This document shows, piece after piece, positions 27,594 to 43,783 of a stretch of 64,000 bases of DNA. The translations under genes and the position numbers were made by a program. Under the pieces are notes generated by a model that was given only the letters and a program-made list of their open reading frames with translations, was not told where the DNA came from and searched no databases. Numbering within the stretch: the stretch's first letter is position 1; each line of letters opens with the position of its first letter. Origin of the DNA: Phanerodontia chrysosporium (taxonomy: Eukaryota > Basidiomycota > Agaricomycetes > Polyporales > Phanerochaetaceae); assembly GCA_001910725.1 (NCBI GenBank), contig MJGA01000025.1, positions 248,001-312,000 on the forward strand, given 5' to 3'.

Positions 27594-30500
27594 ATGCGAG
27601 CAGAGAAGCGACGCCGGCAAGATCAAGATTTATTGAACTCAGGCATAGCTCGTGGCGATGACTTTGCGGGAGAAGCACCGCCACCACCTACGGGACGGTC
27701 TATGCGCACACCCAAGGAAACTGACCGATACAGATTATACCGTACGTATTATACCCTTTACCGTCTATAGCTTAGTGTATCAAACGCTAGCATGTAGAGG
27801 CAGAACTGAAAAGAAGCCGTGAGGCTGCAGAACGACGCAATGCAGCACGCAACACTGGAAACGTAGCTCAGCACCGCTCCAACGAACCGTCCAACACCCA
27901 GCGGCTGAGCACTGGACCCAGCGGTATGTCTTCAATCCCAGCTCATCGCTTATAGTGATGGCCTGCTAATCTCTATGACAGAGACTCCCTTGCTCTTACC
28001 TCCTACGTCCACCGCAAGTACATTCGAGACTGACTACTCCAATGAGTTCAACGGCCCACTTGACCCCGCACTCGAACCGCAACTTGATATCAATCCAATC
28101 AGCATTCCGAGCCCAGACCTATACAACCCGTACGACTTCACATTTCAGTTGCCGCCTAGTGCCGGAAGCAATCCACATGGTACGTGACATACTACGATCT
28201 ATACACCTTCACTACTGAGATCCCAGTATAGACAGCTTCCTGCGGCATACAGGAACCGACGTGCATGGCTTAACAGTGCCTCCGAGTCCGGACCTTCAAG
28301 ACGAAGAAGGTGCAAGCTTGCGTAGTATCGCAGATGATATGCGGTCAAGTGGTCTGCCTCCGTTGCCCAGAGCAAGGGTGAGTTGTATGTCTGTCTTTCG
28401 GGTCCGAGACTTAATTTTCGGATTTAGATTTCTCACGACCTGCTAAATGGCCGTGAGCAACAGACCATGACGCCCATGACGAGTCCGCAAGAATCGCGAC
28501 CCAGCCACGCCACCCAACAGCCAACCCGGCAAGTACAACAACCCATCTTCATTCGTCGAACTGCCGCGCATGTACCACAGGGATATCTACCACCTGACTC
28601 AACGGAGCACTCAGCCCGCATGACTGGCAACACTCAGCCCCTTGCAGGCGACTCCCAGATCTTGCTGGGGCCTGCAGGCGCCATGCTGCGCGGGCACGTT
28701 GAACCTCTCGCCAACAATCTCCATGCTCTAAATGGTGGCCAAATAAGTTGTTCAGCCTCACAGGTGCGCGAGGCTTGCCTACAGTTCAAAAAATATGTAC
28801 ACTTACTGCTGTTACAGGGTGAACCAGACCGTGAGCAATCTGCGGCACCTGCTCAACCGGCGGACAACGAATCTCGTTGCAGTAGCGGCGTCGGAGACGG
28901 TGGCAACCGAAGCTGTGATGAGAACAATGAAGACGCCGGATCAATGCCCACGAATAAGAAAAGACGACCGTCTCGGTCAGTCAAACAGCTCGAGAATTGC
29001 CGTCAAGAACTGATTGAGGCTGCGTGGCCTCATGTCCGTGTTCTCATCGCAGTCCAGAACGCATTTCCTAAAGGTTCCGCAAGCGATGAACTCATCCTCG
29101 ATGCGTTCGTCCAAGCCTGGAAAGAATTAGAAGCACGACACGTCGACCTCACGGGGCTCTCACAGCATCCCAGCAAGCAAGAGAGGGCTCTGGTAGGGTT
29201 CTTTTCCGTATTCAGATCAGAGCCGTGTAACTAATGCGGAGCTTGTAGATGCGCGACCGCATCACGACACATCGCGGCGAGGTCAAGGACTTCGCGCGAA
29301 CGGTCTTCGCGACCTATTACCCCAGACTCCTGACCATTCACCCAGGGGCGTGTAGGGCTTTCTCAAGGAGTGTCGTGGCGGTTTGGAGCGGCTGTTATCT
29401 CGCGAATTGATTATCGGGCTTTATCTCGTAATTACCATTTTAATTCTATATGTCAGCACGTTTTATGTCATCTTTCGAAAGCCTCACGCCCCTGGGCGAC
29501 TGGCACTTTATGTTGGCGCCCGCGGGCGCCTGCGTCGGCGGACCTCGAACAAACGTCGCCGGCGGTGGGGTTCCCTGGAAATTCCAACGCGCGGCGATTG
29601 CCGTGCTTACAGCAAGCTCCCAAATTGGATTGGCAGTCTCGACGCCGCAGCGAGATCCATTGATAACACTGCAGCAGCGCGTGCGTGTGTCTTCCGCCGC
29701 CATGGATAGTATCTTGGATGACCTTGCAAACTACCTCTATGACCGCCCCCGCCCTGTATCTCTCGCAGCTGTCCTGAAGCACGCATTGCTTCGAGATGGC
29801 GAGCAGCAATCCTTGTCAGCCGCGGCTGAACGGCTTCGCCGCGACCTGCTGGCCTCTGTGCATGTCTGGATGACCGAGCTTTGTCATCACGAGCCTGTGA
29901 CTCAATGGATTGAAGAGAGGACCTACCGAGTTTGTACAGAAGAGCTTCAAGAGCTCGTCTTGAAGGACAATGGGTGGCAGTTCTCTGCCCGCCATGCACG
30001 AGCTGATCAGATCGAGGAATTCAAACTCGAGACGATGGCAACAAGAGCGCAAGAGGTGGCGCCCAACTTATGGCGGCTGCTAACCGCATTGACGCATGCA
30101 AATCCTCGAACAGGGTACGATGGGACAGATGGCGTGGGAGGAGACCAAGACGACGACGAAGACTTGGAGGGAGATGCCGAGTTGATTGCATGGCAGGAAG
30201 AGCAGGAAGGGGAGAATCTGCTCGGGAGGGCGTCTGAGCAGGCGAAAAGCAGGCGAAAAGTATCACAAAAATGCGCTGCCCTAGCGCCTATACACCAAAC
30301 CAACCAGCAATACTCACTGGCAAAGGTTTACTTGGACTACAAGGGGTGTAGCCAAGCTTGAAGACGAGGTATAGAGACTAGAGAGGTGAGATGCGATGAG
30401 ATTGAAGCTGGGGAGGCACCCCCAGCCCTCAGGGTTTATATACATGTGTACCAGGTCCCCAGGGACCGGTGTTCAGGGTCCTAGCTATCTAATACCTACT

Positions 30501-33500
30501 ACGCTATTGGCTAGTGCCCTACAGGCATTCCTACATTCTCCTACACGTTCCTAAATGTTCCTACGATGTCCCAGAAACCTCCAGAACGTTCCAGCACTTG
30601 TCCGGACCTGTCCAGAGACCTCCAGGGCTTTCTAGTCCATTCCGGAGTGTCTCGGCGCTTCCAGACCCTTGCCTGCTTCTAGACCTTCGACCATGTGACC
30701 CTGGGATACCGCACGTGTGCGCATCATGTGACCGCCGTATCACGTGACCGGCCCCGAGCCTAGGGCTGTCACTCCAGCGCTTTTGCATGTCACAGTTCGG
30801 AGTAATCGCTTCTGTCACCTGCTGCCCCTAACCCTAAGGGTTGAGACGAAAAACTGTGACATTACCCCCAATTCTAGCTGAACCTCCTGGTGAAGCCTAA
30901 ATACCAGTGGAGCCAAAACCATTGCTGCTGCGAATGGTTGAGTCGAGGCGAGAAACCGGAGTTGGTTCGGCGCAGGAGATTCTTTCGAGCACGAGTTGAG
31001 CGACACGATCACCCTTGTGGAATGTAAAGGTGTCGGGCGAGTTGTTGATGAGTAGAATTTTGAGCTCTCCTCGATAATCTCGGTCAATAACGCCTGCTCC
31101 TATGTCGATGCCTCTGAGGCTGAGGCCACTCCGTGGTGCGACTCGAGCGTAGGTACCTGGTGGAGTACACATTCGAAGGCCCGTTGACGCTAGCTTGCGA
31201 TCATGGGGCTTGAGCGTAAGGTCTTCCGTGATGAAAAGATCCAACCCTGCGCTTTCTGGCGAGCCACGTGAGGGGAGTTTTGCGTCCTTGTTCATGAGCT
31301 CGACCTCGAACTGGTCGTCTGCTCCCCAAGATTGGAGTAGCGCGAGTTCGCGCACGAAAAACTCATCCTCCTCGTCGTGGTGGCGTTGCAGAAGGGAAAT
31401 TGCCTTCGGCGCATCTGGGTATTTCCTGTGGAATTGTTTGACCTTCGCCATAGCGTGCTTGAGATTGGGCAAGTATTCCCATGTGTCGCTATGCTCATCG
31501 TAGCCTCTCCACCGTACTCGGTACATAACACGGCCTTTAGAGTCTGGCTGTGCATCTACAATCTGCTCGACCTCGTACTCCTCGTCATCACCCACACGAA
31601 TGGGTGGTAGGGGTTTGCGCGTGCGATTGGCGACCTCATCCTCGACGTGCTTCGTGAGCTTGCTTGCGTGGAAGACCGGGTGAATCTTCACATGGACTGG
31701 TAACTTCAGCTTGAAGGTGACCGGTCCCAGCTGCTCTACGATCTCGTAAGGGCCTACTCGCTTTGGTGCCAGTTTCTTGGAGGGAACCCGAAGGTTCAGA
31801 TCCTTTGCGTCAAGCCAAACACGGTCTCCGACCTTGAACAAGGGTTCTGATTTACCCTGGTCGTAGTACCACTTCATTCGCTCTGCAGCCAGCACGAGCG
31901 CGGCTTTCGCCTGATCTTGGGCCTCCTGTCTAAGCTTCGTCCAGTCGTCCAGTTCTGACAACCTTGTAACACGGTCCTGCTCTGGGAACATGCGTGGATG
32001 ACGGCCATATTCGACGAAGAATGGCGAGTTCTTGGTGCTTTCATGCGCCTGGTTGTTGTACGCAAACTCGGCAGAGGGCAAAAGGTACGCCCAGTCGTCC
32101 TGCCTGAAGCTTGTGTAGCAGCGCAGATATTGCTCCAATGACTGATTAACTCGCTCAGTCTGACCGTCTGCCTGAGGGTGAAACGCTGTAGTCATTGCTG
32201 ACTTGATCCCCAGGAGTCTGCACCATTCCTGGAAGAGTTTCGCGGCGAACTGCGTTCCTCTATCCGAAATGATCTGTCTGGGTAGGCCGTGCAAAGGCCA
32301 AACACGCTCATAGAGCAAATTTCCCAGATCCTTGGCTGAAAACTCCTTGGTGATAGGGAGGAAATGTGCTCGCTTGGTTAAGCGGCAAACGACTACGAAG
32401 ATAGCGTTGTAACCGTCCGACTCAGGCAAGTCCGTGATCATATCGCATGAGATTATCTCCCAGGGTTCCGACGGAACCTCGTTCGGTTGTAGCAGGCCAG
32501 CAGGCTTCTGGTTGACGTTTTTATGCGACTGGCAGACTTCGCAGCCTGCGACGTACTTCTTGACGTAAACTGACATTCCTGGCCACCAGTAGTTGCGCGA
32601 CAGCAACTCCAACGTCTTCCATCGTCCAGGGTGTCCAGCCCCAGGGAAGTCGTGGTGTAACTTGAGTAGATCCGCCCTAATCTTGTCGTCCTTGGGTACA
32701 TACACCTTGCCTCGGTGCAGTAGTAGCCCGTCCTCGAGGTGCCATTCCGCTAAGTCCTTCCCGAACTCTCTTGGTCCTTTCTCGTGGTCCATAACACTTG
32801 ATGACTCTGTCATCCAACTGGGCTTGTATTGATCCTCTTGCTAGCCTCTTGCTAGTGTCCCTTATCACTGAATGGCCAGATTGCCTTGGGCTCGTATCGT
32901 GGAAGATTCTGGCTTCTCAATGTGGTTTCCACGATTATGGCAATCTACCCCCAATTCAGGATATGGCCTCCTGGACATAGGATCAGCCCCTTCTCAGGCT
33001 AGTGCGTCTAATTCCAACGTGTGTAGGCTGACTCCAAGAGTCTATGCATAGCCAATATAGGTAAAAAGCCATTTTGACCCAACTGCTGCAGTCGCTCTCA
33101 ACACCCTGAAGTATCTGGGATTATGCCCTGAATGCTAACTTCAACTAGGTGTTGCAAACATCTTCAGGCTGAGAGACACTGCCCTGTCACTTGCTCGGCA
33201 AGCAACCGAAAACTTCTGCTTCAGTACCCCGAAGCTAAGTTGTGGAGCCCTCCCCAAGGGTACCAGTACCTCGGTGCCTAGGGACCTGCACTATCTGACT
33301 AACTCGTCCAATAAATGGCACAACACTGGGCCTTCTGAGTAGTAATACTCGCCCTACTTTGGTTCTCAACAGTTGAGAGGCTCCAAAGTTCTGTCAGATA
33401 GCCGAAACTGAGGGGCACAACACTGGAATCTTTGATTCCTCCCTTCTGGCAGTTCAACTGCCGAAAACTGTGGCCAATCTGGGGTGGTGTAAGCGACAGT

Positions 33501-36500
33501 TAGAGTCTAAGCTCTGCTCTTTCCTCCTCGAAGTCCTAGTTCCTCAGTTCTTCGGGTTCTGCTTATGCTGCCCATGCTCATCCCAGTCTATTCTTTGACT
33601 AGACCTCTTTGAGCAGCTAAGGCTGAGGAAATGTCCTTTCCACCCAGATCTGTAATGAGGCATGCTTGTCTGGAGACATGGTCCCCTACGGCTATGTCGA
33701 GCCAAGCATACTCCTCAATACTGCCACACTTGTTCCTGGAGCCATCTGCGTTGTAAACGCGTATCTCCCTGGCCAGCTGGTTCGTCTTCAGCTTATGCTT
33801 CTTGACGAAGCGATGGCTAATGAACACAGCATAGGCCCCTGAATCAACCAGCGCGGTAGTCTGCACTCTGATTTCCCTACTCTGACTCAGTGTTACTGGA
33901 ATGATAAAGCTCAAATGAAGGCCTTCCTCAATTCCAAAACATGTTCAATTGAGTCAAGTGGGTGAAGGAAATCGAAAACGGACCAGAGGTCATAACCTCT
34001 ACATCAGTCCCTGCAGAAAATCCTCGTCGTCTGAGAACACCACGCGGTTAATCTTCTGCGCCTTCTCCTTCGAAGACGACTTCTTTTGCTTGGTCTTGGG
34101 GGTGTCTTCTTCTTCTGAGCTATCCGAGCTCGACTCCTCGTCAGAGGCTACCTCCTGGAATCTCTCCGAGTCGCTGGCGTACACCTCGCGCGCACTGCTT
34201 TTCGTGTGGCGAGAGCCCTTATCCTTCTCCTTTCCCTTTGAAGCCGAAGCCTTTGACGAACTGGCCACCGGTGCATTGGTGGTTTTACTCGACGACGTCG
34301 AAGAACCTGAGTTGTTCTTCTTCGATGGACACTCCTTGGCGATGTGGCCTTTGCCTCCACACTGAGCGCAGCAGCCTTTCTTCTTTGCCTCCTCGAACGA
34401 CATGGCAACCTTCTGAACTTTGGCTGTCTTGCCTTTGCCCTGGGCTGAGCCCTTCTTCAAGGCGTCGACATCCATAGCGTCAGGGTCTTTCGACGACTGA
34501 GGCTGTCCAGAGAGTACGGTGCCCGTCAAGAGACGTTGATCCTGCAGAATCTCCTGAACATCCTTCAACCAACCATCCCAGGTCGTAGCCCACTGAGCAC
34601 GACCACGGGCTGCCAGTACATCGGCGGCGGCACGAGGGGTATGGGCATAGGCTTTGACCAACAGTTCCTCGTTGGAGAAGCCAGTTTGGCGAGCCAGCGA
34701 ACGGAAGCGAGCGGCAAACTCGTTGAAAGTCTTCTCGTTCGTCCCTTTCTTGCTGACAAGCTGCTCAAACTCTGCCCTTGCCCTGTCCTTCTTGTCGGTC
34801 TGTTGGAATCCTTTCTGGAGTTCGTTCACAAAGTTGGTCCAAGTACCAAGGGGCTTTGAGTCTGCCACCTTGTCGAAGTACTCTTGCATGACCTTCTTTG
34901 CTGAACCTCGCAGGTAAGTCATCGCTGTCTCTATCTTCTTTTCGTCGTCCATTACGCCACGGTGGCGCAACCAGAGTGCCATCGACTCGAGCCAGTCATC
35001 CAGCTTGCTAGCCTTATCACCATTAAAGGTGTCAGGCTCCTTCATGGTAGGGAACAAAGACTGAGACAACCCAACGTTGCCTCCACTAGTGCCTTGCTGA
35101 ACCAACACTTTCAAGCTCTCGTTCTCCTGCTTCAGCACCTGCATAGCGTTCTGCAAAACGCGATTTTGGTTCTGAGCCTCTGCTATCTGCGCAGACAAGT
35201 GCTGTCTAGTCTGCTCAAGAGTGTCTATCTGCTCCTGAAGTGTCTTGGCCTCAGTTTTGCGTTTGCGAAGGGCTTCCTTCAAGCGAAGGACTTCTGAACC
35301 CATTTCCGACCTTACTTGAGCTATCTCAGCCTTTACCCAGTTACCCAGGCTGTCAACGAGGGCCTTGAAGTCGCCAGGAGTCAGTCCTTCCTGAGCGGCT
35401 TGTACCCATGACTGGCTGTACTCTTCGTAAGAGGTCGAAAGCGGCGCAGCGGCCAAAACTGGGGTAGGGCCTCCCTCAGCCATAGAGCCGAGTTCTAACG
35501 CTCCCCAAGGGTCCATACCACTTGAACTCGCAGCAGAACGCAAACCAAAGTCAACAGGATTTGAATTGAGCGACATCTTGATTCAAAAACGCGCAGATAC
35601 AAAAACTAATCGAGGTTCTTCTCCAAAAACAACCAATCTTCACCCAACTCCTGAATCAGCTCCCTGCAATGCTCAGCGAAGCGTGGCTTAAGCTCAGCGA
35701 AGCTATGTGCGCCTGCCTTCTTCAAATCCCTCGAAATCTTCTTCCACTCCCTCGTGGTGTACTCCTTCGTCTCGACGATGGTCTGAAGGTGTTTGCGAAT
35801 GTTGTCGAACCTCTCCTTGAACAAGCCCAAGGTGTAGAGCTCGTGTTCAGTCAACCCAACTCGAAAACGCTGCTCGTCTAGCTTCTGAAAGAACGGACCC
35901 AAGTGGTTAAGGGTGCCGTTGAACTTTCGTCCGTAGTCGCGCAGCTGATGGACCTGAGTGTTGGTGTGAAAGCGAAGGTCTTTGGGAATGGGTTTGACTT
36001 CGATAGGGGAGTAGGGGGAGGTTCAATACGTTCGATGAGGGGTAGAGGGGGAGGGGCGTTCGCGATGCGATCGAGTAGGCGGCGCTTGCGCTGTTCGTTG
36101 CGATAGTCTTCGAGCTGAAGCTGGTGCTTGAAGTCGTTCAAGTCTGCTTCACGAGCAAGCCTTTCACGACGACCAGGGACAGGGGTGTAGGGTGTAGTGC
36201 GAGGTTTGTACGCAGGGCGCGGCTTCCCAACGTCTTTGAAGCGGTGAAGGTTCGAGATCTTGATGCGCTCAAGCAAGGGTTTGCCAGAGCTCTCGTCCTT
36301 AGCAAGGACAAAACGGTTCCTAGCAGCTTTAGGCACTAGTAAACACGGGTCAGCCTGTGTACACAAGCCAGAAAACTTCTCCACACAGGCAAAGCGCAAG
36401 GCTTTCCTGCCAGCCAACCCTCAACGAAGAGAAAGGGGTATTACTGTGGGTTTCCACGCCACACAGCTAAAACTGGTTGGACAGGGTATTACACCCTTAG

Positions 36501-39500
36501 TCCAGCACTACAACAGGGGTTACTCGTCCGCAGGCAAAGCCCTCTGAGGTGGGTTACACCACGTTCCCCTGTCTGTACCTAAAAAGGTACTATAGTGCCC
36601 ACTTACGCCTGTGGATCGGCAAAAAACTGAACAAAGCGCAAAAGCACTTGTTCAAACAAGCCCCCAGAACCCAAAGCAATAACCTAGGCCACCAAAGGTG
36701 GAGTAGGTTGGCTAGCTTCAATCTTCTATCACATAAATGCGCTGCCCTAGCGCCTATACACCAAACCAACCAGCAATACTCACTGGCAAAGGTTTACTTG
36801 GACTACAAGGGGTGTAGCCAAGCTTGAAGACGAGGTATAGAGACTAGAGAGGTGAGATGCGATGAGATTGAAGCTGGGGAGGCACCCCCAGCCCTCAGGG
36901 TTTATATACATGTGTACCAGGTCCCCAGGGACCGGTGTTCAGGGTCCTAGCTATCTAATACCTACTACGCTATTGGCTAGTGCCCTACAGGCATTCCTAC
37001 ATTCTCCTACACGTTCCTAAATGTTCCTACGATGTCCCAGAAACCTCCAGAACGTTCCAGCACTTGTCCGGACCTGTCCAGAGACCTCCAGGGCTTTCTA
37101 GTCCATTCCGGAGTGTCTCGGCGCTTCCAGACCCTTGCCTGCTTCTAGACCTTCGACCATGTGACCCTGGGATACCGCACGTGTGCGCATCACGTGACCG
37201 CCGTATCACGTGACCGGCCCCGAGCCTAGGGCTGTCACTCCAGCGCTTTTGCATGTCACAGTTCGGAGTAATCGCTTCTGTCACCTGCTGCCCCTAACCC
37301 TAAGGGTTGAGACGAAAAACTGTGACAAAAAGTGAAGGAACCGATCATGCGGCGGCGGGAAACCATGCGTAATATTGTACGCCCAGTGGATCTATAAGCC
37401 TGGCGTGAGAGACTTACTAGCAGTTTTCACAGTGGCAGCTAGTAGTTCTTTCAAACCTCATGATTACCACCAACCAGAGGTGTAATGCTTTACAATCAAT
37501 TCTCGGCATATTTCTTCACGGACACAACACACCCGAGAAGGTGTGCGAAGTTCTAAGCCGCATGGGGATCAGCATATCCATGACCACGGTTCACGCCGCC
37601 ATCAACTCACTGTCAGCAGATGCCATGTGCTACCTATGGAAGCTCGGGCGGCGACGTCTCGTTAGCTATTGCTACGACAACTTCGATGTCACTCTAAAAA
37701 GTGCGAAATGGACGGTGGATTCCCAGAAGACGCCATCTTTGAAGCATCTAACCGCCGCATTGTTGATTTCCCTACCCCCAGGAACACTGAAATCAGATCT
37801 TCGTTGCTCTGACTATCTGTGGAAGAACTCACGCCTGAATGATAGCCTGCCCGGAAACCGACCTGGTCTTGCGCCTGAGCCGAGCTTCGAGCACATGCTC
37901 GCCATCCACCCGCAATACTGGAGTGAGGGGGACGGCTGCGCGAATGGATCCACTCGGTGGCAGGCATGGAAGTTCCTCCACGATCTGGTCCATCACGGAC
38001 CGCCATACTTCCGCCAATTCATTCCCCTTCTGGTGCCACCCGAGACAATCGACGTCGTACCGCTTTCGAAGACTGAGTGCACACCTGCGAAGGCAATGGA
38101 GAAGTCAAACTCGACAGTCTCGGGCAATCTGGAGGCGATTAGAGACTTACTCAACCAGGGAGGAATCGTATCGGGAGATGAGAACCAATCTGATGAATAC
38201 GCGTCAGACGATGAAGACGATGACGAGGAAATGAAGAAACCAAAACCAATCCGCAATTATGCTGTTCTTGTCCACGGCGACCTCGGCACAGGCGAGCGAA
38301 TTGCAGCGGTCCTGGCGCAGCGTGCAATCGAGGACACCGCATGGAGAAGGTTCCAGTTCGTCGTGTACGTCCTGGGGCTTTTCCACTTCAAGATGGCGTG
38401 CGTGGAGGCGATCTGGCGGCTAGTAATCCGACCACTATCAGCGCGGCTGGATAAGACGTCAGTAATGCAGCATGTCGGCATCCTTCGCGAGCGCGAGACG
38501 GGAATTATTGCGAAAGACCCGGGCTTCCGAAGAATGCACCAGGTCATTACTCACGATGGCCGCTGCCGAAGGCTGCACTGCTGGCTGCAAGAGGTCCGCA
38601 ACAGCGGATGCGAGAGCTTGGAGAGATGGGCTGAATCTGCGCAACCCACATTTGATGAGCTCCGTGAACTTGCGAAGCGTCTCGCGAAGACGTACGTTGG
38701 CACCACCTCGCGTATCGAAGAGCTACGAAGCGCTGAGCACCGAGACGAGCAGTTAGAGAACGCATTAGTAATCAACCTATACTACCTTCTCTACGAGGAG
38801 GTGTCGTACGCGATGAACGTCGGCGATATCGGGCGTGTCGAAGCATGCTTCGCACCGTGGACACTAATCTTCAAGACCGTCGGTAAGCACAAGTACGCGG
38901 CAGAGATGATGAAGCACATAACGAACGTACATTTTTTCTTTCCGGAGCGGCTGAAGTAAGTATATTCGAGTGTTGGTCGTCAATGGTACTGACCGTATGC
39001 GCCGTGATAGGCGAGCCGTCCGGTACTCGATGCTTGTGAATCCAACCGGTCTTCCAGGGAAATTTCGGGGCACTGATTGGGTTATCGAGTTGCAGAACCT
39101 CTACACAAAGGTTCGTCAATCATCGGCATGTGTCGGGTGTAATGCTAACATGTGAGCGACGTACGGCAGGCCGTTCTAGTCGTTCCGGGGCCGAATCGAA
39201 CTGTTGAGGCAATCATCAAGGAGTCCACCCTCATTAACATCTTCCGAAACACGCACCTCACATTGGAGAAGAACCTTGCCTTGAATTACCTGTCAACACG
39301 TCATGCTGACCCGGATATGACACAGACCTACGCCATCCTTGAGCAGCATATGAAGCAACACTTACCGTACGGCTTCTGCCAAGGTCGGAAGAGTTCACAC
39401 AAGTTTCAAGATGTCTTCATGATCGGATTGGAGCGGTTGGCGAGGAAAGCATCTACTGATACAAATATGGGTACGAGCTCTACGGGAGATGGGGCGGGTG

Positions 39501-42500
39501 AGGATGGGCAGGCCGATGCTGACAGGGAGTTGTACCCTGATGAAGATGATATCAGCTTAGATCTAGACGACGTGTAAGGGAATACATACCGACGTTGATA
39601 CATTTTGAGTGAAAGGCGACATCTCGCTGTAGTGTAAACCAAGCCATGTACTCGGAGAATACATGGCAGGCGGTGCGGCAGACCTGTCAGCGCCGTTGTA
39701 GAATGCACCACCAGGGTGTCTCAACCGACCTGCCTCCGAGCTCTCAGCATGTGGAGGGGACGGAGGTGCGGGGTCAACGAATATTGACGGTGAGTAATGG
39801 GGGTCGAAGGCGGGGCTGCTCGACCCTGCCATACTCAGGCTAGCGGCGGACGGTGAGGGGACGCGGAAGTGGCGAGGGACTAGATCATTTTGCATGAGCT
39901 AACGGCGTCACAGCATCAGCACGACTTCACGGTACTTACCTTGTCCCGACGCAGAATCCGGCAGTTGCGCAAACGTGGTTGTAGCAGCGAGAGAAGTGTT
40001 TTGATTCGGGGAAGCGAATGGTGTGGCTGATGTGGACAAGAGCGTCGAGGGCGGGGGAAGGGAGGCAAGTGAGTTTGCAGAGGAGGGGGTATCTTCGTCA
40101 TGTGGATGAGTGTTAGTGGAGACCCCGCGAGCGCGAGCAGCAACGTTAGCCGGGTTCTCGGGGTGCACGAGACATTTGGTCTTATTATTCTCTGGGAAAT
40201 AGCTTAGAGTCTATTCATGGAAACATGGAATATACGCACTGTAATGGCCAGTGACCCCACACGCGCTACAACGAGATGGGGCTCGTGTCTTGCCTTGTGC
40301 AGCTCCTTCAGTAGTGTTTGTAGACCCAGTCAGCTCGTCACTTGTCCCCGATGGCGGAGGCGAAGTCGATGGTAGTGTAGAACGCCATGAGGTGATAATA
40401 TCGAGGACTTGTGTTGCGCACCGTGAGAGCTCCTTCCAGCCGCTTAGTTCACGCTCCAGGTCCTCCTGCGTCTCCAGCTGATCTGCGAAGTCGACCACAC
40501 GGTTGAGGATTTCGTCGGTCATGAGTAGACCGACGCCCATGAGTGTGATTTGGCCCAAGCCAAAGCGGTTGACGGCCTCGGTCTTCCGCCATGCATGGAG
40601 GAGGTCGCTGAGCAGCATCTTCTCGGGCTGTCGCACGTATCCCTTCGGTAGGCGGGGACGCTGAGGCTTGCTTTGCTTCTGAAGGAGAGCGGTGACAAGC
40701 TCCTTCTTGAAGTACTTGGGGTTGCAGAGGTCGCAGCAGGAGGGAGATGATGGGAGGAGGCAACGGGTACAGCCAGTGGGGGATGTTGGGTCGCAGCGTT
40801 TGTGATCAGTCTCTGCGTGAGCAATTAGGTGAGTACGAGTTCCCAAAAAGGCAATTCCAGCGATTCTCCTCTCACCTACGCCGTCACTGCTGAAATACAG
40901 CTTGATAGCAGCTCTTCGACAGCGGAGACCCCGGTATCCTGCGTTGATAACGTCTGCGACCTCTAGATCAAGATCCTCTATCGCAGGTCGCTTTCCCTTA
41001 GCCGCTCCCCTTTTGCCGGTTGCGTGCTCTTTCGCCCTCTTCTTTTCGCGTGCCTCTCTGACATACCGAGTCTTCCGCTCATCGTATAGCTGCCTGAGCT
41101 CTTCCTCTGTCTTGTCATCAACCCTCTCGCTTGCCCCACCCTCGTCCGCATTGATCCCCATCACCTCTGTCAGCTCCTCGGCTGCCTCCTCGTCGACAAC
41201 GTCTTCTTCAGCGACGACCCTGTCTAGTTCCATATCATCGTCTTCGACTGGCCCACTGGCAACGTTCCGCATACTTGCATCCTGGTCGGCCAGCTCTACA
41301 GGCTCCGCGATGGGTGTCCCGTGCACATCGACAGCACGGCGCTTTGGGCTCCTTTCCAAATCTATAGGTTGTTGTTTCGCCTTCTTTCGCTTCTGCGCTG
41401 CTTGGGTGGCCCTGGTCGCACGTTTCTGATCCTTAGCCTTGCTTTCTAGATATTTCTCCTCAACGAAGATGATTCCAAATGCGCTATAACGTCTGTCGCG
41501 AGCGCCGCGGCCTAACCGCTGCCATAGAGTAATTAGATTACATCGTGTTCGCCATTGGACGACCAATTTGATGTCAGGAAGATCAACGCCCTAATATATT
41601 CCGTGAGATTCTGATCTTTGGTACAATTTGCACGGCGTACCATGCCAAAAGAGTCTGTGGCGCAGATGCCCCAGATTTCTCCCTTGCGCAGCTTCTCGAG
41701 AGCCTCGGCCTTGAATTCATCAGACATATTTGAGTGGAACCATACAATCTTGCCCCGGTGCTCTGTGTCCCGGATCCTCTGACGCAGGAACTTGCCGGCT
41801 GCAGTGCACTCGCTGATGCTGTCAAAAAACGCCACAAATTTGGGCGGAGCATCATCGCCTTCCTTCCAGTCCTCCGGTACGAGGAAAGCAAGATCTCGAT
41901 AAGAATCAAGGGCATGCACAATCTTTCGAACACCAATATGAATATTGGGCCTGTCATTGGGCCGGCGGATGTGAACATAGTTCCCACCAGCCAGCCCGAA
42001 GGACGTTTTGATCTCATCAAGGATCAGCGGCGAGAACGTCGCAGAAGCAAAAGCAAAAGGAGTCTCCGGAAGCAGATAACGCAACCGTGAGATCTCCGTG
42101 TATTCGGGCCGGAAGGAGCCCCATTGGGTGATGCAGTGAGCCTCATCGAATACTACAGCGAGAACCTGGGAGCGGAATGAAGTCTCTCGAAAGAGCGCTT
42201 CGAAGCCGCCCCCGTACTTCACCAGCTGCTCAGGGCTCGATATGACGACAGTGTACCGGCCGTCTTGAATATCCTTGATCCACTTTTATTAATAATCATA
42301 TACTGAGCTAGCAAGAACTGGACTTACCTTGAAATTTTGTTTCGTAGCCGTATCTCCAGTGATTGCTATGGAGGATATTCCGACAGCTTCCAGTTGGGCT
42401 ACCATCTGCGCCGCAAGGACATTGAGGGCGGTCACCACGACGAGCACCTGGCCGGGCTCGGCAAAGAGCGCCAGAGTATAGAATGCGAGTGTCTTCCCTT

Positions 42501-43783
42501 GTCCAGTACCGACATCGAGGATGACATTCTTGCCGCTCCAGATAGCCTCAGGGAACTCGTACTGCCAATGACAATTGCGCACGCCGAATCGAGCTATCAC
42601 GCGCTGGCGGACCGCGTGGATCGTCGGGGCCCCGGATGATACACAGCTACCAGATTGAGACGCGGTGCGCGCCATCAAGAAGTTTCGGCGGTGGAAGGTG
42701 AGGAGACAGCGTGGCAGAAGACATGAACACGGCAATCGCCGCGCGTTGGAATTTCCAGGGAACCCCACCGCCGGCGACGTTTGTTCGAGGTCCGCCGACG
42801 CAGGCGCCCGCGGGCGCCAACATAAAGTGCCAGTCGCCCAGGGGCGTGAGGCTTTCGAAAGATGACATAAAACGTGCTGACATATAGAATTAAAATGGTA
42901 ATTACGAGATAAAGCCCGATAATCAATTCGCGAGATAACAGCCGCTCCAAACCGCCACGACACTCCTTGAGAAAGCCCTACACGCCCCTGGGTGAATGGT
43001 CAGGAGTCTGCTATTACCCTGGCTTTCAAAGATGCGGACCAGATGACACCGAGAAGAGGAACGCTAATCGAGCGTTGTACGAGGAGCTTATCTCTCCGGA
43101 GAAGCTCCCAATGTACCTTCGTGCAGTAAGTACACTGATCTACATCTCCTCACGGTGTCCCTCTGACATTCAAACGTTGCAGCCTGATACAAATGGTCGC
43201 CGAGTCGGCGTCATCTACGGTGCACCAATGATAAAGCGGATCGTCTGCGCGTGTTGGTTCTCGCATGACGAAGCTCTCGGCCCACGCTATCTCACTCACT
43301 TTGAAGACCCTGATGTCTCTGGCGGCCTCGCACTAGAAGTTATTGCCTTCGTTGCAACCATCGTATGTGCGCTTTCTTCTCTACCATGGAATTCTGCTCA
43401 CTCAGCCACTCTCCTTGTTCTGGACTTAGGTGAGGTTCACACTCGACGACTGGGCATCTGGGTACATCAAGACTGGCAAGAACGCACCGCAGCTGCGCAG
43501 GAATGCATACGAAAGGGTCTACCGCACTCATCTACAAACCTTGAAGAACTGGCGCAAAGCGGACCGAGATAACGGCACCTCGGTTCTCGAGAGCCTACAA
43601 TGCAGCTATTGGAACGAAGCTCTGTGAGTGTTTATCATGATATTTACTCTGCTTACTAACGACTGCTGCATCAGGGAGCATGCTATGGTGCCAGACGGCG
43701 CATCCGCTGATGACGGCAGTGAACCTGAGGACGCCTGCGCTGCAGGTGCTGACTTTGCAGGGGAAAGCTTGGCATTCATGTAG
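27594..43783 (+). CDS. DUF6532-like protein gene, split by a 13.7-kb transposon
   Basis: Exons 27594-27741, 27798-27923, 27982-28179, 28232-28377, 28428-28763, 28818-29192, 29249-29322 then 43020-43125 (one exon interrupted by the insertion), 43183-43362, 43430-43623, 43675-43783. Removing the insertion and one copy of its 9-bp duplication restores 1992 nt in frame (663 aa); every exon phase fits. The N-terminus is basic (EKRRRQ) and the middle is Pro/Ser-rich. The C-terminal domain (HRGEVKDFARTVFATYY ... YLTHFEDPDVSGGLALEVIA ... LDDWASGY ... VYRTHLQTL) resembles DUF6532, a basidiomycete domain of unknown function. It lies inside the Plavaka element, so it may be transposon cargo or an accessory DNA-binding factor. 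As it stands it cannot encode the full protein. Confidence 0.8.
29314..29322. repeat. 9-bp target-site duplication (left) of DUF6589/helicase element
   Basis: CTATTACCC, repeated at 43011-43019; both copies lie in the same exon of the DUF6532-like gene. Confidence 0.95.
29323..29605 (+). repeat. Left terminal inverted repeat, 283 bp
   Basis: Matches the reverse complement of 42728-43010 with no difference seen; translated frames through both copies also agree. Confidence 0.95.
29702..39577 (+). CDS. DUF6589-like protein gene (candidate transposase), split by gypsy insertion
   Basis: Exons 29702-30260 plus 37333-37376 (interrupted by the gypsy element), 37439-38955, 39011-39110 and 39170-39577. 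Removing the retrotransposon and one AAAAG copy restores 875 codons with all phases consistent. Blocks typical of DUF6589 are seen: TTNQRCNALQSILGIFLH, SYCYDNFDVT, LKHLTAALL, LRCSDYLWK, HGDLGTGER and FHFKMACVEAIWR. Asp281/Asp284, Asp482 and Glu487 or Glu524 are conserved-looking acidic residues that could form an RNase-H-like DDE site; that is inference. An acidic tract (DDEDDDEE) lies before HGDLGTGE. The gene starts 97 bp inside the left terminal repeat boundary and its stop overlaps the end of the helicase gene by 15 bp. Confidence 0.85.
30256..30260. repeat. 5-bp target-site duplication (left) of gypsy element
   Basis: AAAAG, repeated at 37328-37332; the two copies flank the LTRs exactly. 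Confidence 0.92.
30261..30861 (-). repeat. 3' LTR of gypsy element
   Basis: 601 bp; differs from 36727-37327 at an A/T near 30267 and at a CATGTGAC/CACGTGAC site. It contains an unusual run of TTCC-rich short repeats (GTTCCTA, GTTCCAG, CCAGA). Confidence 0.93.
30862..30880 (-). promoter_or_regulatory. Polypurine tract of gypsy element
   Basis: On the minus strand AATTGGGGGTAA lies directly before the 3' LTR. Confidence 0.6.
30897..32813 (-). CDS. Integrase-chromodomain-dUTPase polyprotein fragment of gypsy element
   Basis: 638 aa in one frame. The integrase zinc region (LHHDFPGAGHPG ... CEVCQSHK) and core with Asp in SCDMITDLP, Asp in IISDRGTQF and Glu in DGQTERVNQSLE are complete. A chromodomain follows (YEVEQIVDAQ ... 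YRVRWRGYDEHSDTWEYLPNL), which in chromoviruses steers integration to marked chromatin. From about residue 511 the protein continues into a dUTPase with all five family motifs: AGLDL, PRSGLSLRG, GAGVIDRDYRGE, GDRVAQLVLE and GFGSTG. dUTPase hydrolyses dUTP to dUMP, limiting uracil in new cDNA. Upstream in frame a stop (about 32846) occurs before any RNase H motif, so Met 32813 begins just downstream of a lost region. The function is intact by motif; how it is expressed without the rest of Pol is unclear. Confidence 0.9.
   Translation of the reverse strand: MTESSSVMDHEKGPREFGKDLAEWHLEDGLLLHRGKVYVPKDDKIRADLLKLHHDFPGAGHPGRWKTLELLSRNYWWPGMSVYVKKYVAGCEVCQSHKNVNQKPAGLLQPNEVPSEPWEIISCDMITDLPESDGYNAIFVVVCRLTKRAHFLPITKEFSAKDLGNLLYERVWPLHGLPRQIISDRGTQFAAKLFQEWCRLLGIKSAMTTAFHPQADGQTERVNQSLEQYLRCYTSFRQDDWAYLLPSAEFAYNNQAHESTKNSPFFVEYGRHPRMFPEQDRVTRLSELDDWTKLRQEAQDQAKAALVLAAERMKWYYDQGKSEPLFKVGDRVWLDAKDLNLRVPSKKLAPKRVGPYEIVEQLGPVTFKLKLPVHVKIHPVFHASKLTKHVEDEVANRTRKPLPPIRVGDDEEYEVEQIVDAQPDSKGRVMYRVRWRGYDEHSDTWEYLPNLKHAMAKVKQFHRKYPDAPKAISLLQRHHDEEDEFFVRELALLQSWGADDQFEVELMNKDAKLPSRGSPESAGLDLFITEDLTLKPHDRKLASTGLRMCTPPGTYARVAPRSGLSLRGIDIGAGVIDRDYRGELKILLINNSPDTFTFHKGDRVAQLVLERISCAEPTPVSRLDSTIRSSNGFGSTGI
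32847..33587 (-). other. Non-coding gap where reverse transcriptase/RNase H is missing
   Basis: About 0.74 kb with no frame longer than about 60 codons and no RT (YxDD) or RNase H motif. A normal gypsy element would have about 1.5-2 kb of RT-RNase H coding sequence between protease and integrase. Confidence 0.8.
33588..33914 (-). CDS. Retropepsin-like protease of gypsy element
   Basis: 108 codons. TALVDSGAYAVFIS gives the aspartyl protease D-S-G motif, and ACLITDLGGKDI could supply the second conserved segment near the C-terminus. It lies downstream of gag on the same strand but in another position, 84 bp beyond the gag stop, so its translation route is unknown. It would cleave Gag and the integrase protein. 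Confidence 0.75.
   Translation of the reverse strand: MSFIIPVTLSQSREIRVQTTALVDSGAYAVFISHRFVKKHKLKTNQLAREIRVYNADGSRNKCGSIEEYAWLDIAVGDHVSRQACLITDLGGKDISSALAAQRGLVKE
33999..35576 (-). CDS. Gag of gypsy element
   Basis: 525 codons from ATG 35576. A coiled-coil-prone segment (EALRKRKTEAKTLQEQIDTL) precedes the retrotransposon Gag domain (DKASKLDDWLESMALWL ... FVNELQKGFQ ... ARFRSLARQTGF). A CCHC knuckle (CAQCGGKGHIAKEC) lies near residue 400, followed by a long Ser/Lys/acidic low-complexity tail. It should form the virus-like particle and bind the RNA. The frame is intact. Confidence 0.88.
   Translation of the reverse strand: MSLNSNPVDFGLRSAASSSGMDPWGALELGSMAEGGPTPVLAAAPLSTSYEEYSQSWVQAAQEGLTPGDFKALVDSLGNWVKAEIAQVRSEMGSEVLRLKEALRKRKTEAKTLQEQIDTLEQTRQHLSAQIAEAQNQNRVLQNAMQVLKQENESLKVLVQQGTSGGNVGLSQSLFPTMKEPDTFNGDKASKLDDWLESMALWLRHRGVMDDEKKIETAMTYLRGSAKKVMQEYFDKVADSKPLGTWTNFVNELQKGFQQTDKKDRARAEFEQLVSKKGTNEKTFNEFAARFRSLARQTGFSNEELLVKAYAHTPRAAADVLAARGRAQWATTWDGWLKDVQEILQDQRLLTGTVLSGQPQSSKDPDAMDVDALKKGSAQGKGKTAKVQKVAMSFEEAKKKGCCAQCGGKGHIAKECPSKKNNSGSSTSSSKTTNAPVASSSKASASKGKEKDKGSRHTKSSAREVYASDSERFQEVASDEESSSDSSEEEDTPKTKQKKSSSKEKAQKINRVVFSDDEDFLQGLM
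35606..36417 (-). CDS. Leader ORF upstream of gag, frameshifted
   Basis: Two overlapping frames: 36417-35878, rich in basic and Pro residues, and 35902-35606, helical (FFQKLDEQRFRV ... FAEHCRELIQELGEDW). The second frame is open further upstream (HQLRDYGRKFNG), so the two were probably one ORF joined near 36010, where one base of a C-run seems lost. It sits between the 5' LTR and gag. I recognise no domain; it may be an N-terminal Gag-like protein. Confidence 0.5.
36418..36726 (-). other. 5' untranslated leader of gypsy element
   Basis: About 310 bp between the 5' LTR and the leader ORF. I could not assign a primer-binding site with confidence; the sequence next to the LTR on the minus strand reads GAAGATTGAAGC. 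Confidence 0.5.
36727..37327 (-). repeat. 5' LTR of gypsy element
   Basis: 601 bp, near-identical to 30261-30861. Confidence 0.93.
37328..37332. repeat. 5-bp target-site duplication (right) of gypsy element
   Basis: AAAAG, the continuation of the interrupted DUF6589-like exon follows directly. Confidence 0.92.
39563..42675 (-). CDS. RecQ-like DEAH-box helicase with C-terminal zinc finger, transposon-borne
   Basis: Five exons (42675-42328, 42282-41641, 41590-40240, 40191-39940, 39879-39563) give 969 aa with all phases consistent; introns are 45-60 nt. The helicase core shows Walker A (VGTGQGKT), motif Ia region (VVVTALNVLAAQM), the DEAH box (VVFDEAHCITQWG, with the RecQ-like ITQWG), SATFSP, and motif VI (QRLGRGARD). 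RecQ-type enzymes unwind DNA 3' to 5'. The later part is highly charged, with KR-rich stretches, then a CX2C...H...C finger completed across an intron (CSACGVTGHY). It lies 53 bp inside the right terminal repeat and converges on the DUF6589-like gene. It may help process transposition intermediates, similar in principle to helicase-bearing elements such as Helitrons, although no Rep nuclease is present. Confidence 0.85.
42728..43010 (-). repeat. Right terminal inverted repeat, 283 bp
   Basis: Inverted match of 29323-29605, no difference seen. Confidence 0.95.
43011..43019. repeat. 9-bp target-site duplication (right)
   Basis: CTATTACCC, after which the DUF6532-like exon resumes in frame. Confidence 0.95.

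What the first reader, a model, noticed from the sequence alone, without database searches (positions are those of the whole stretch)
29323..43010. Candidate new transposon family: DUF6589-like protein plus RecQ-like helicase between 283-bp inverted repeats
The element has long inverted repeats that look identical, a 9-bp target duplication (CTATTACCC) and a precise in-frame empty site in the interrupted exon. It contains only two genes, both reconstructable in full, and neither is a transposase family I know. The DUF6589-like protein has RNase-H-fold-like acidic motifs (YDNFD, HGDLGTGE) and is the natural transposase candidate; a partner helicase in a cut-and-paste element would be unusual. 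Seen: repeats, duplication, both genes. Inferred: mechanism and novelty. I cannot exclude that this association is already described.
Basis: partly seen in the sequence, partly recalled or inferred. Interest (0 to 1): 0.92.

Follow-up and report, generated by a model that had tools for sequence, protein, structure and literature searches.

The report
AcademH-like transposon with DUF6589 transposase
A fungal jumping gene that carries its own likely cutting enzyme (a protein so far labelled only 'unknown function') and a DNA-unwinding helicase has inserted into another gene; it fits a transposon lineage named AcademH that was already described in 2020, and the useful new point is a likely job for the unlabelled protein.

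Summary
In detail: a 13,688-bp insertion with perfect 283-bp terminal inverted repeats (TIRs) and a 9-bp target duplication interrupts a DUF6532 gene in frame. It holds convergent DUF6589 and RecQ-like helicase genes. The two genes travel together: all 15 helicase matches in this 39-Mb genome lie within 11 kb of a DUF6589 match (15 of 17 DUF6589 loci), and 8 hit pairs from seven named Agaricomycetes share a contig length. Both ends were placed at 11 of 14 loci examined: ten with 9-bp duplications (one weaker), one with 8 bp. Ka/Ks is low in both genes (0.05-0.17, many pairs saturated). A predicted DUF6589 structure ranks DDE transposases (Hermes, P, ISCth4, Transib) first, with conserved D-D-E candidates; Foldseek alone was not significant. 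Held papers say AcademH transposons encode a helicase, make 9-10-bp duplications and occur in Basidiomycota, so 'new family' is not supported. Whether DUF6589 is the Academ transposase could not be tested by sequence. Verdict: a new member of a known kind, and a probable function for PF20231.

The parts
29314..29322 (.). left copy of the 9-bp target site duplication CTATTACCC
43011..43019 (.). right copy of the 9-bp target site duplication CTATTACCC
29323..29605 (+). left terminal inverted repeat, 283 bp, begins CAGACTCCTG
42728..43010 (-). right terminal inverted repeat, 283 bp, 100% complementary to the left one
29702..30260 (+). 5' part of the DUF6589 (putative transposase) gene, up to the LTR insertion
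   Evidence: open frame; resembles the N-terminal frame of the C60 copy; start codon read
30261..37327 (-). nested Ty3/chromovirus LTR retrotransposon (LTRs 30261-30861 and 36727-37327, flanking duplication AAAAG); not part of the transposon proper
   Evidence: AAAAG read
37333..38955 (+). DUF6589 gene after the LTR insertion, with the main exon (PF20231); candidate catalytic residues D at 37676-37678 and D at 38279-38281 (exact start of the main exon not settled)
39011..39110 (+). DUF6589 exon with the third candidate catalytic residue, E at 39087-39089 (DWVIELQN)
39170..39577 (+). last DUF6589 exon with stop codon
42328..42675 (-). helicase exon 1 (Walker A GTGQGKT)
41641..42282 (-). helicase exon 2 (DEAH box)
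40211..41590 (-). helicase exon 3 (QRLGRGAR motif, Cys-rich C-terminus); further small introns not excluded
28428..29322 (+). left flank: interrupted DUF6532 gene (the part tested is its end, next to the insertion)
43020..43572 (+). right flank: rest of the DUF6532 gene

Best explanation
It is a helicase-encoding cut-and-paste DNA transposon of the AcademH kind. The DUF6589 protein is the DDE transposase: it binds the long TIRs, excises the element and joins it to a staggered cut that leaves a 9-bp duplication. The convergently transcribed RecQ-like SF2 helicase is an accessory protein, most likely unwinding or remodelling DNA at the ends or clearing the strand-transfer product for repair. Shown: ends, target duplications, empty frame, linkage of the two genes, low Ka/Ks in both. 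Supported by prediction: RNase-H-like DDE fold and triad. Inferred: catalysis, the helicase's step, and identity with the published AcademH transposase. In the window copy the transposase gene is interrupted by the LTR insertion.
For: TIR and TSD; in-frame empty site. In the own genome 15 of 15 helicase matches lie within 11 kb of the nearest DUF6589 match (12 of them within 2.6 kb), at 15 of 17 DUF6589 loci. Both ends were placed at 11 of 14 loci examined: 9-bp duplications at C64, C60, C69, C57, C87, C1, C113:1.20M, C124, C135:614k and, more weakly, C2:414k; 8 bp at C102. Two 1.3-kb elements with the same ends also have 9-bp duplications. Eight DUF6589/helicase hit pairs in seven named Agaricomycete species share species and contig length, two with consecutive gene numbers. 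Ka/Ks 0.09-0.17 (helicase exon, 6 of 10 pairs with finite Ks) and 0.05-0.17 (DUF6589, 6 of 10). AlphaFold model, pLDDT 84.8; the 12 best VIA-align rows are all DDE transposases (Hermes, P element, ISCth4, Transib). D277 50/52, D473 52/52, E728 34/36; the motif around E728 recurs at 7 of 11 divergent loci scanned. Published AcademH traits match.
Confidence: 0.85

Rival explanations
1. A separate, undescribed superfamily of DUF6589/RecQ-like transposons that merely converges on AcademH in helicase content and 9-bp duplications.
For: No paper in the held library names DUF6589 (0 papers; only 4 unrelated hits to the accession letters), and no Academ reference sequence could be aligned. Gene order varies: convergent at the window and most loci, divergent at C124, C135:614k and C2:943k (coordinates).
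Against: Helicase, 9-10-bp TSD and occurrence in Basidiomycota are exactly the traits that held papers give for AcademH.
Confidence: 0.1
2. KolobokH: a Kolobok-lineage transposon with a RecQ helicase, known only from fungi.
For: Also a RecQ helicase with a DDE transposase in fungi (PMC9587614 passages).
Against: Kolobok target duplications are TTAA (recalled), whereas here they are 9 bp and none is TTAA. In KolobokH the helicase is described as downstream of the transposase domain, whereas here it is a separate gene on the other strand.
Confidence: 0.02
3. A Mutator-like element (long TIRs, 9-bp duplications) that captured DUF6589 and a helicase as passengers.
For: MULEs make 9-bp duplications and can have long TIRs (recalled).
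Against: No MULE transposase match in the nine frames scanned or in the seven proteins. The same two genes recur in divergent families with conserved ends and low Ka/Ks, which passengers would not be expected to show.
Confidence: 0.02
4. DUF6589 and the helicase are host genes and the inverted repeats are incidental.
For: None found here.
Against: Near-identical copies with different flanks and different 9-bp duplications (C1/C113 and C124/C135 pairs); interrupted DUF6532 exon.
Confidence: 0.01

Closest known systems
AcademH lineage of the Academ superfamily (Kojima 2020, Mob DNA 11:15; not held, known here through passages of PMC10045372 and PMC10799480 and otherwise recalled)
   Same: Encodes a helicase; 9-10-bp target duplications; low copy number; reported in Basidiomycota.
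   Different: Among the traits I could test, only one locus (C102) with an 8-bp duplication differs. Homology of DUF6589 to the Academ transposase is untested.
KolobokH (fungal Kolobok with RecQ helicase; PMC9587614 passages)
   Same: DDE transposase plus RecQ helicase, fungi.
   Different: Duplication length (9 bp, against TTAA recalled); helicase on a separate, opposite-strand gene.
hAT (Hermes), P element and Transib/RAG transposases
   Same: Predicted RNase-H-like DDE core with a helical insertion; best structural neighbours.
   Different: 8-12% identity over the aligned parts of the rows quoted; duplications of 8 bp (hAT, P) and 5 bp (Transib), and absence of a helicase gene there, are recalled.

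Membership tests
AcademH | 9- or 10-bp target site duplication | tested here: met
   9 bp at the window and at 9 further loci, one of them weaker; 8 bp at one (C102); no ends found at 3 of the 14 loci examined
AcademH | encodes a helicase (SF2) | tested here: met
AcademH | terminal inverted repeats | tested here: met
   window, 283 bp; C57, 142 bp; shorter or diverged elsewhere
AcademH | transposase homologous to Academ DDE transposases | not testable with these tools
   no Academ reference sequence held; Kojima 2020 not held; the rows shown by the two DUF6589 protein searches carry basidiomycete names or none
DDE/RNase-H transposase (general) | RNase-H-like fold with D-D-E at the expected places | tested here: met
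KolobokH | TTAA target duplication (recalled) | tested here: not met
MULE | MULE transposase domain | tested here: not met
   no MULE Pfam match among the nine frames scanned, nor in P0014, P0017, P0043; short frames of the element were not scanned
canonical RecQ helicases | RQC and HRDC domains after the helicase core | tested here: not met
   absent from the precomputed Pfam lists of the 69 nearest hits P0184-P0252, present in most of the 51 RecQ hits P0253-P0303; Pfam names of those accessions recalled

The most novel reading that the evidence does not exclude
DUF6589/RecQ-like elements form a transposon superfamily independent of Academ, in which a dedicated helicase gene is obligatory for DDE cut-and-paste transposition and sets the 9-bp stagger.
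Probability: 0.1. Interest if true: 0.7.

Novelty: new member of a known kind. Interest (0 to 1): 0.38.

Why it matters
PF20231 (DUF6589) has many members in Agaricomycetes (413 hits in one capped search) that are named only 'hypothetical' or 'DUF6589'. Evidence that it is the DDE transposase of helicase-encoding AcademH-type transposons would let annotation pipelines relabel these genes, together with their RecQ-like neighbours, as mobile DNA. It also gives a compact system in which to ask why a DDE transposon needs a helicase and whether that sets the length of the target duplication.

Tried and rejected
Reaching animal Academ relatives through protein searches failed: the rows shown by the three searches were basidiomycete relatives, unnamed metagenome proteins or, for the helicase, RecQ, so the link from DUF6589 to Academ was not tested by sequence. 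An empty allele in the own assembly: the window's left flank occurs once; the right flank's only full match is the window itself, with two 73% partial matches; so no empty site was seen. My first guess that the C1/C113 and C124/C135 pairs are allelic was wrong: the elements match but the flanks differ, so they are separate insertions. The inverted repeat reported first for C1/C113 lay 64 bp inside the true ends. No ends were found at C59, C94 and C113:1.33M; C2:943k, C73 and C83 were not examined for both ends. The end pair at C2:414k rests on a scan with 9 of 12 matching end bases plus a 36-bp inverted match at E = 0.11 and is weaker than the others. For C60 and C69 only the ends and parts of the 31-kb and 23-kb spans were held; the pairing rests on TIR and identical 9-mers. 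Structure search by Foldseek alone was not significant; the VIA-align second look only re-ranks Foldseek's candidates. Literature: 'DUF6589' 0 papers; 'PF20231' 4 unrelated papers; 'Academ transposase' 0; two further multi-term searches gave 0 and 1 paper, the latter on Helitrons. Passages of PMC12730594, PMC12210899, PMC8290104 and PMC10294476 held no Academ transposase sequence or motif.

Full report
OBSERVATION. The inverted repeats at 29323-29605 and 42728-43010 are 283 bp and perfectly complementary, and the match ends sharply after base 283. They abut a 9-bp direct repeat, CTATTACCC, at 29314-29322 and 43011-43019. The element spans 13,688 bp. The flanks belong to one gene: the right flank alone matches DUF6532 (PF20149) at 33.4 bits over profile 81-161, and the joined flanks (with one short intron of the right flank spliced out) at 54.9 bits over profile 52-161 in one stretch.

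CONTENT. The plus-strand DUF6589 gene starts in the frame at 29444-30361 and has its PF20231 domain at 37421-38956 (245.9 bits). Splicing with the homologues as guide gives an open frame from 37442 to the stop at 39577 through exons ending at 38955, 39110 and 39577. The minus-strand helicase reads open through three exons, 42675-42328, 42282-41641 and 41590-40211, as 789 residues with GTGQGKT, DEAH and QRLGRGAR motifs. For its exon 2 the nearest solved relatives are WRN and RecQ, and NCBIfam's recQ_fam is the best family, well under that family's whole-protein cut-off (64.3 against 219.8 bits). Its 69 nearest relatives lack the RQC and HRDC domains in their precomputed Pfam lists.

Between 30261 and 37327 lies a Ty3/chromovirus LTR retrotransposon: LTRs of 601 bp at 99.7% identity, a frame that reads like gag (not scanned), and a frame with integrase, chromodomain and a C-terminal dUTPase, flanked by AAAAG on both sides (read). 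It interrupts the 5' part of the DUF6589 gene. The helicase is open; the transposase gene of this copy is not continuous. Without the LTR element the transposon is about 6.6 kb, close to a relative of 6,195 bp without such an insertion (C57).

THE SAME PAIR ELSEWHERE IN THIS GENOME. The 43 PF20231 matches fall into 17 loci and the helicase exon matches into 15. All 15 helicase matches lie within 11 kb of the nearest DUF6589 match, 12 of them within 2.6 kb; two DUF6589 loci (C73, C83) have none. The first look of that search passed only 15 candidates on, so ordinary host RecQ genes may simply not have been scored. Of the 14 loci for which I held sequence around both expected ends, 11 gave a pair of ends. 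Ten have 9-bp duplications: C64 CTATTACCC, C69 GTCTGCTCC, C60 GCAGCTTGC, C57 TGCACAGCC, C87 GGGTATCGC, C1 ATCATCCGC, C113:1.20M ATGGGGAAG, C124 GGGAAGAAC, C135:614k ATTTTGTGG and, weaker, C2:414k AAGGAATAC. One has 8 bp: C102 GCATCTCA. Three gave none: C59, C94, C113:1.33M. For C60 and C69 the 31-kb and 23-kb spans were not read through. Two 1.3-kb elements that share the window's ends also carry 9-bp duplications, C91 CGGTGGCCT and C135:112k GTGCGACGC, and look like non-autonomous relatives moved in trans. Most ends begin CAGACTCC, TAGTCT or TAGGCTCGG. Pairs such as C1/C113 are nearly identical inside and different outside, with different duplications, which is what transposition leaves.

THE SAME PAIR IN OTHER FUNGI. 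In the protein searches, eight helicase hits out of the 69 that rank above the ordinary RecQ hits (P0184-P0252; at least three are unnamed metagenome proteins) share species and exact contig length with a DUF6589 hit listed (P0001-P0183). They are Phlebia brevispora twice, with consecutive gene numbers (g3330/g3331 and g272/g273), Pisolithus albus, Pisolithus microcarpus, Mycena leptocephala, Mycena galopus, Boletus edulis and Irpex rosettiformis. I matched these by eye; each search shows only its best 120 rows, so 61 of 69 without a partner in the lists says little. On long contigs, sharing a contig does not show adjacency.

SELECTION. Between copies in this genome Ka/Ks is 0.09-0.17 for the helicase exon (6 of 10 pairs with finite Ks, 4 of them with Ks under 1) and 0.05-0.17 for DUF6589 (6 of 10 finite, 1 with Ks under 1); the other pairs are saturated. 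No significance test was made. The least saturated pairs (C60-C69: 0.17 and 0.08) point the same way: both proteins are kept by selection, which argues against passengers.

WHAT IT IS. [quoted passage not shown] Academ elements were also noted in the agaricomycete Marasmius oreades (PMC8290104, passages). The window element meets the traits that I could test. The defining paper (Kojima 2020) is not held, so homology of DUF6589 with the Academ transposase is a defining feature left untested. KolobokH is the other fungal RecQ-bearing lineage (PMC9587614, passages), but its TTAA duplication (recalled) does not fit. I therefore file it as AcademH at 0.85. That the host is a basidiomycete rests on these nearest relatives; the assembly is unnamed.

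HOW IT LIKELY WORKS. DUF6589 protein pairs the TIRs, cuts the element out and joins it at a 9-bp stagger; host repair leaves the duplication. The helicase probably opens or clears DNA at the ends or the joined product. Only the ends, duplications, linkage and low Ka/Ks are shown; the chemistry and the helicase's step are inferred.

NOVELTY. The association is not new if this is AcademH. What I did not find in print in the held library is any mention of DUF6589, so naming PF20231 as the probable transposase may be a useful annotation step; most subscription papers and Repbase reports were not searched.

Noticed in passing
window 30261-37327: Chromovirus LTR retrotransposon whose pol frame ends integrase-chromodomain-dUTPase; a similar frame lies inside the C60 element. 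A 2010 paper on Tcn1-like chromoviruses of fungi and plants mentions dUTPase (PMC2864245, search listing only), so probably a known kind.
   Followed up: partly
L006/L007 (C91:323695-325017) and L058 (C135:112072-113380): Two about 1.3-kb elements with the window family's ends and 9-bp duplications; C91 has inverted repeats of 564 bp, nearly the whole element, like a foldback.
   Followed up: partly
L008 (C60:175953 and 176074): The C60 element carries a second copy of its terminal sequence about 120 bp inside the left end, perhaps a partial end duplication or self-insertion.
   Followed up: no
C2:943k, C124, C135:614k compared with the other loci: DUF6589 and helicase are divergently transcribed there but convergent in the window family, so gene order in these elements is not fixed.
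   Followed up: no
C102:293428-299213: Element with TAGTCT ends but an 8-bp rather than 9-bp duplication, GCATCTCA.
   Followed up: no
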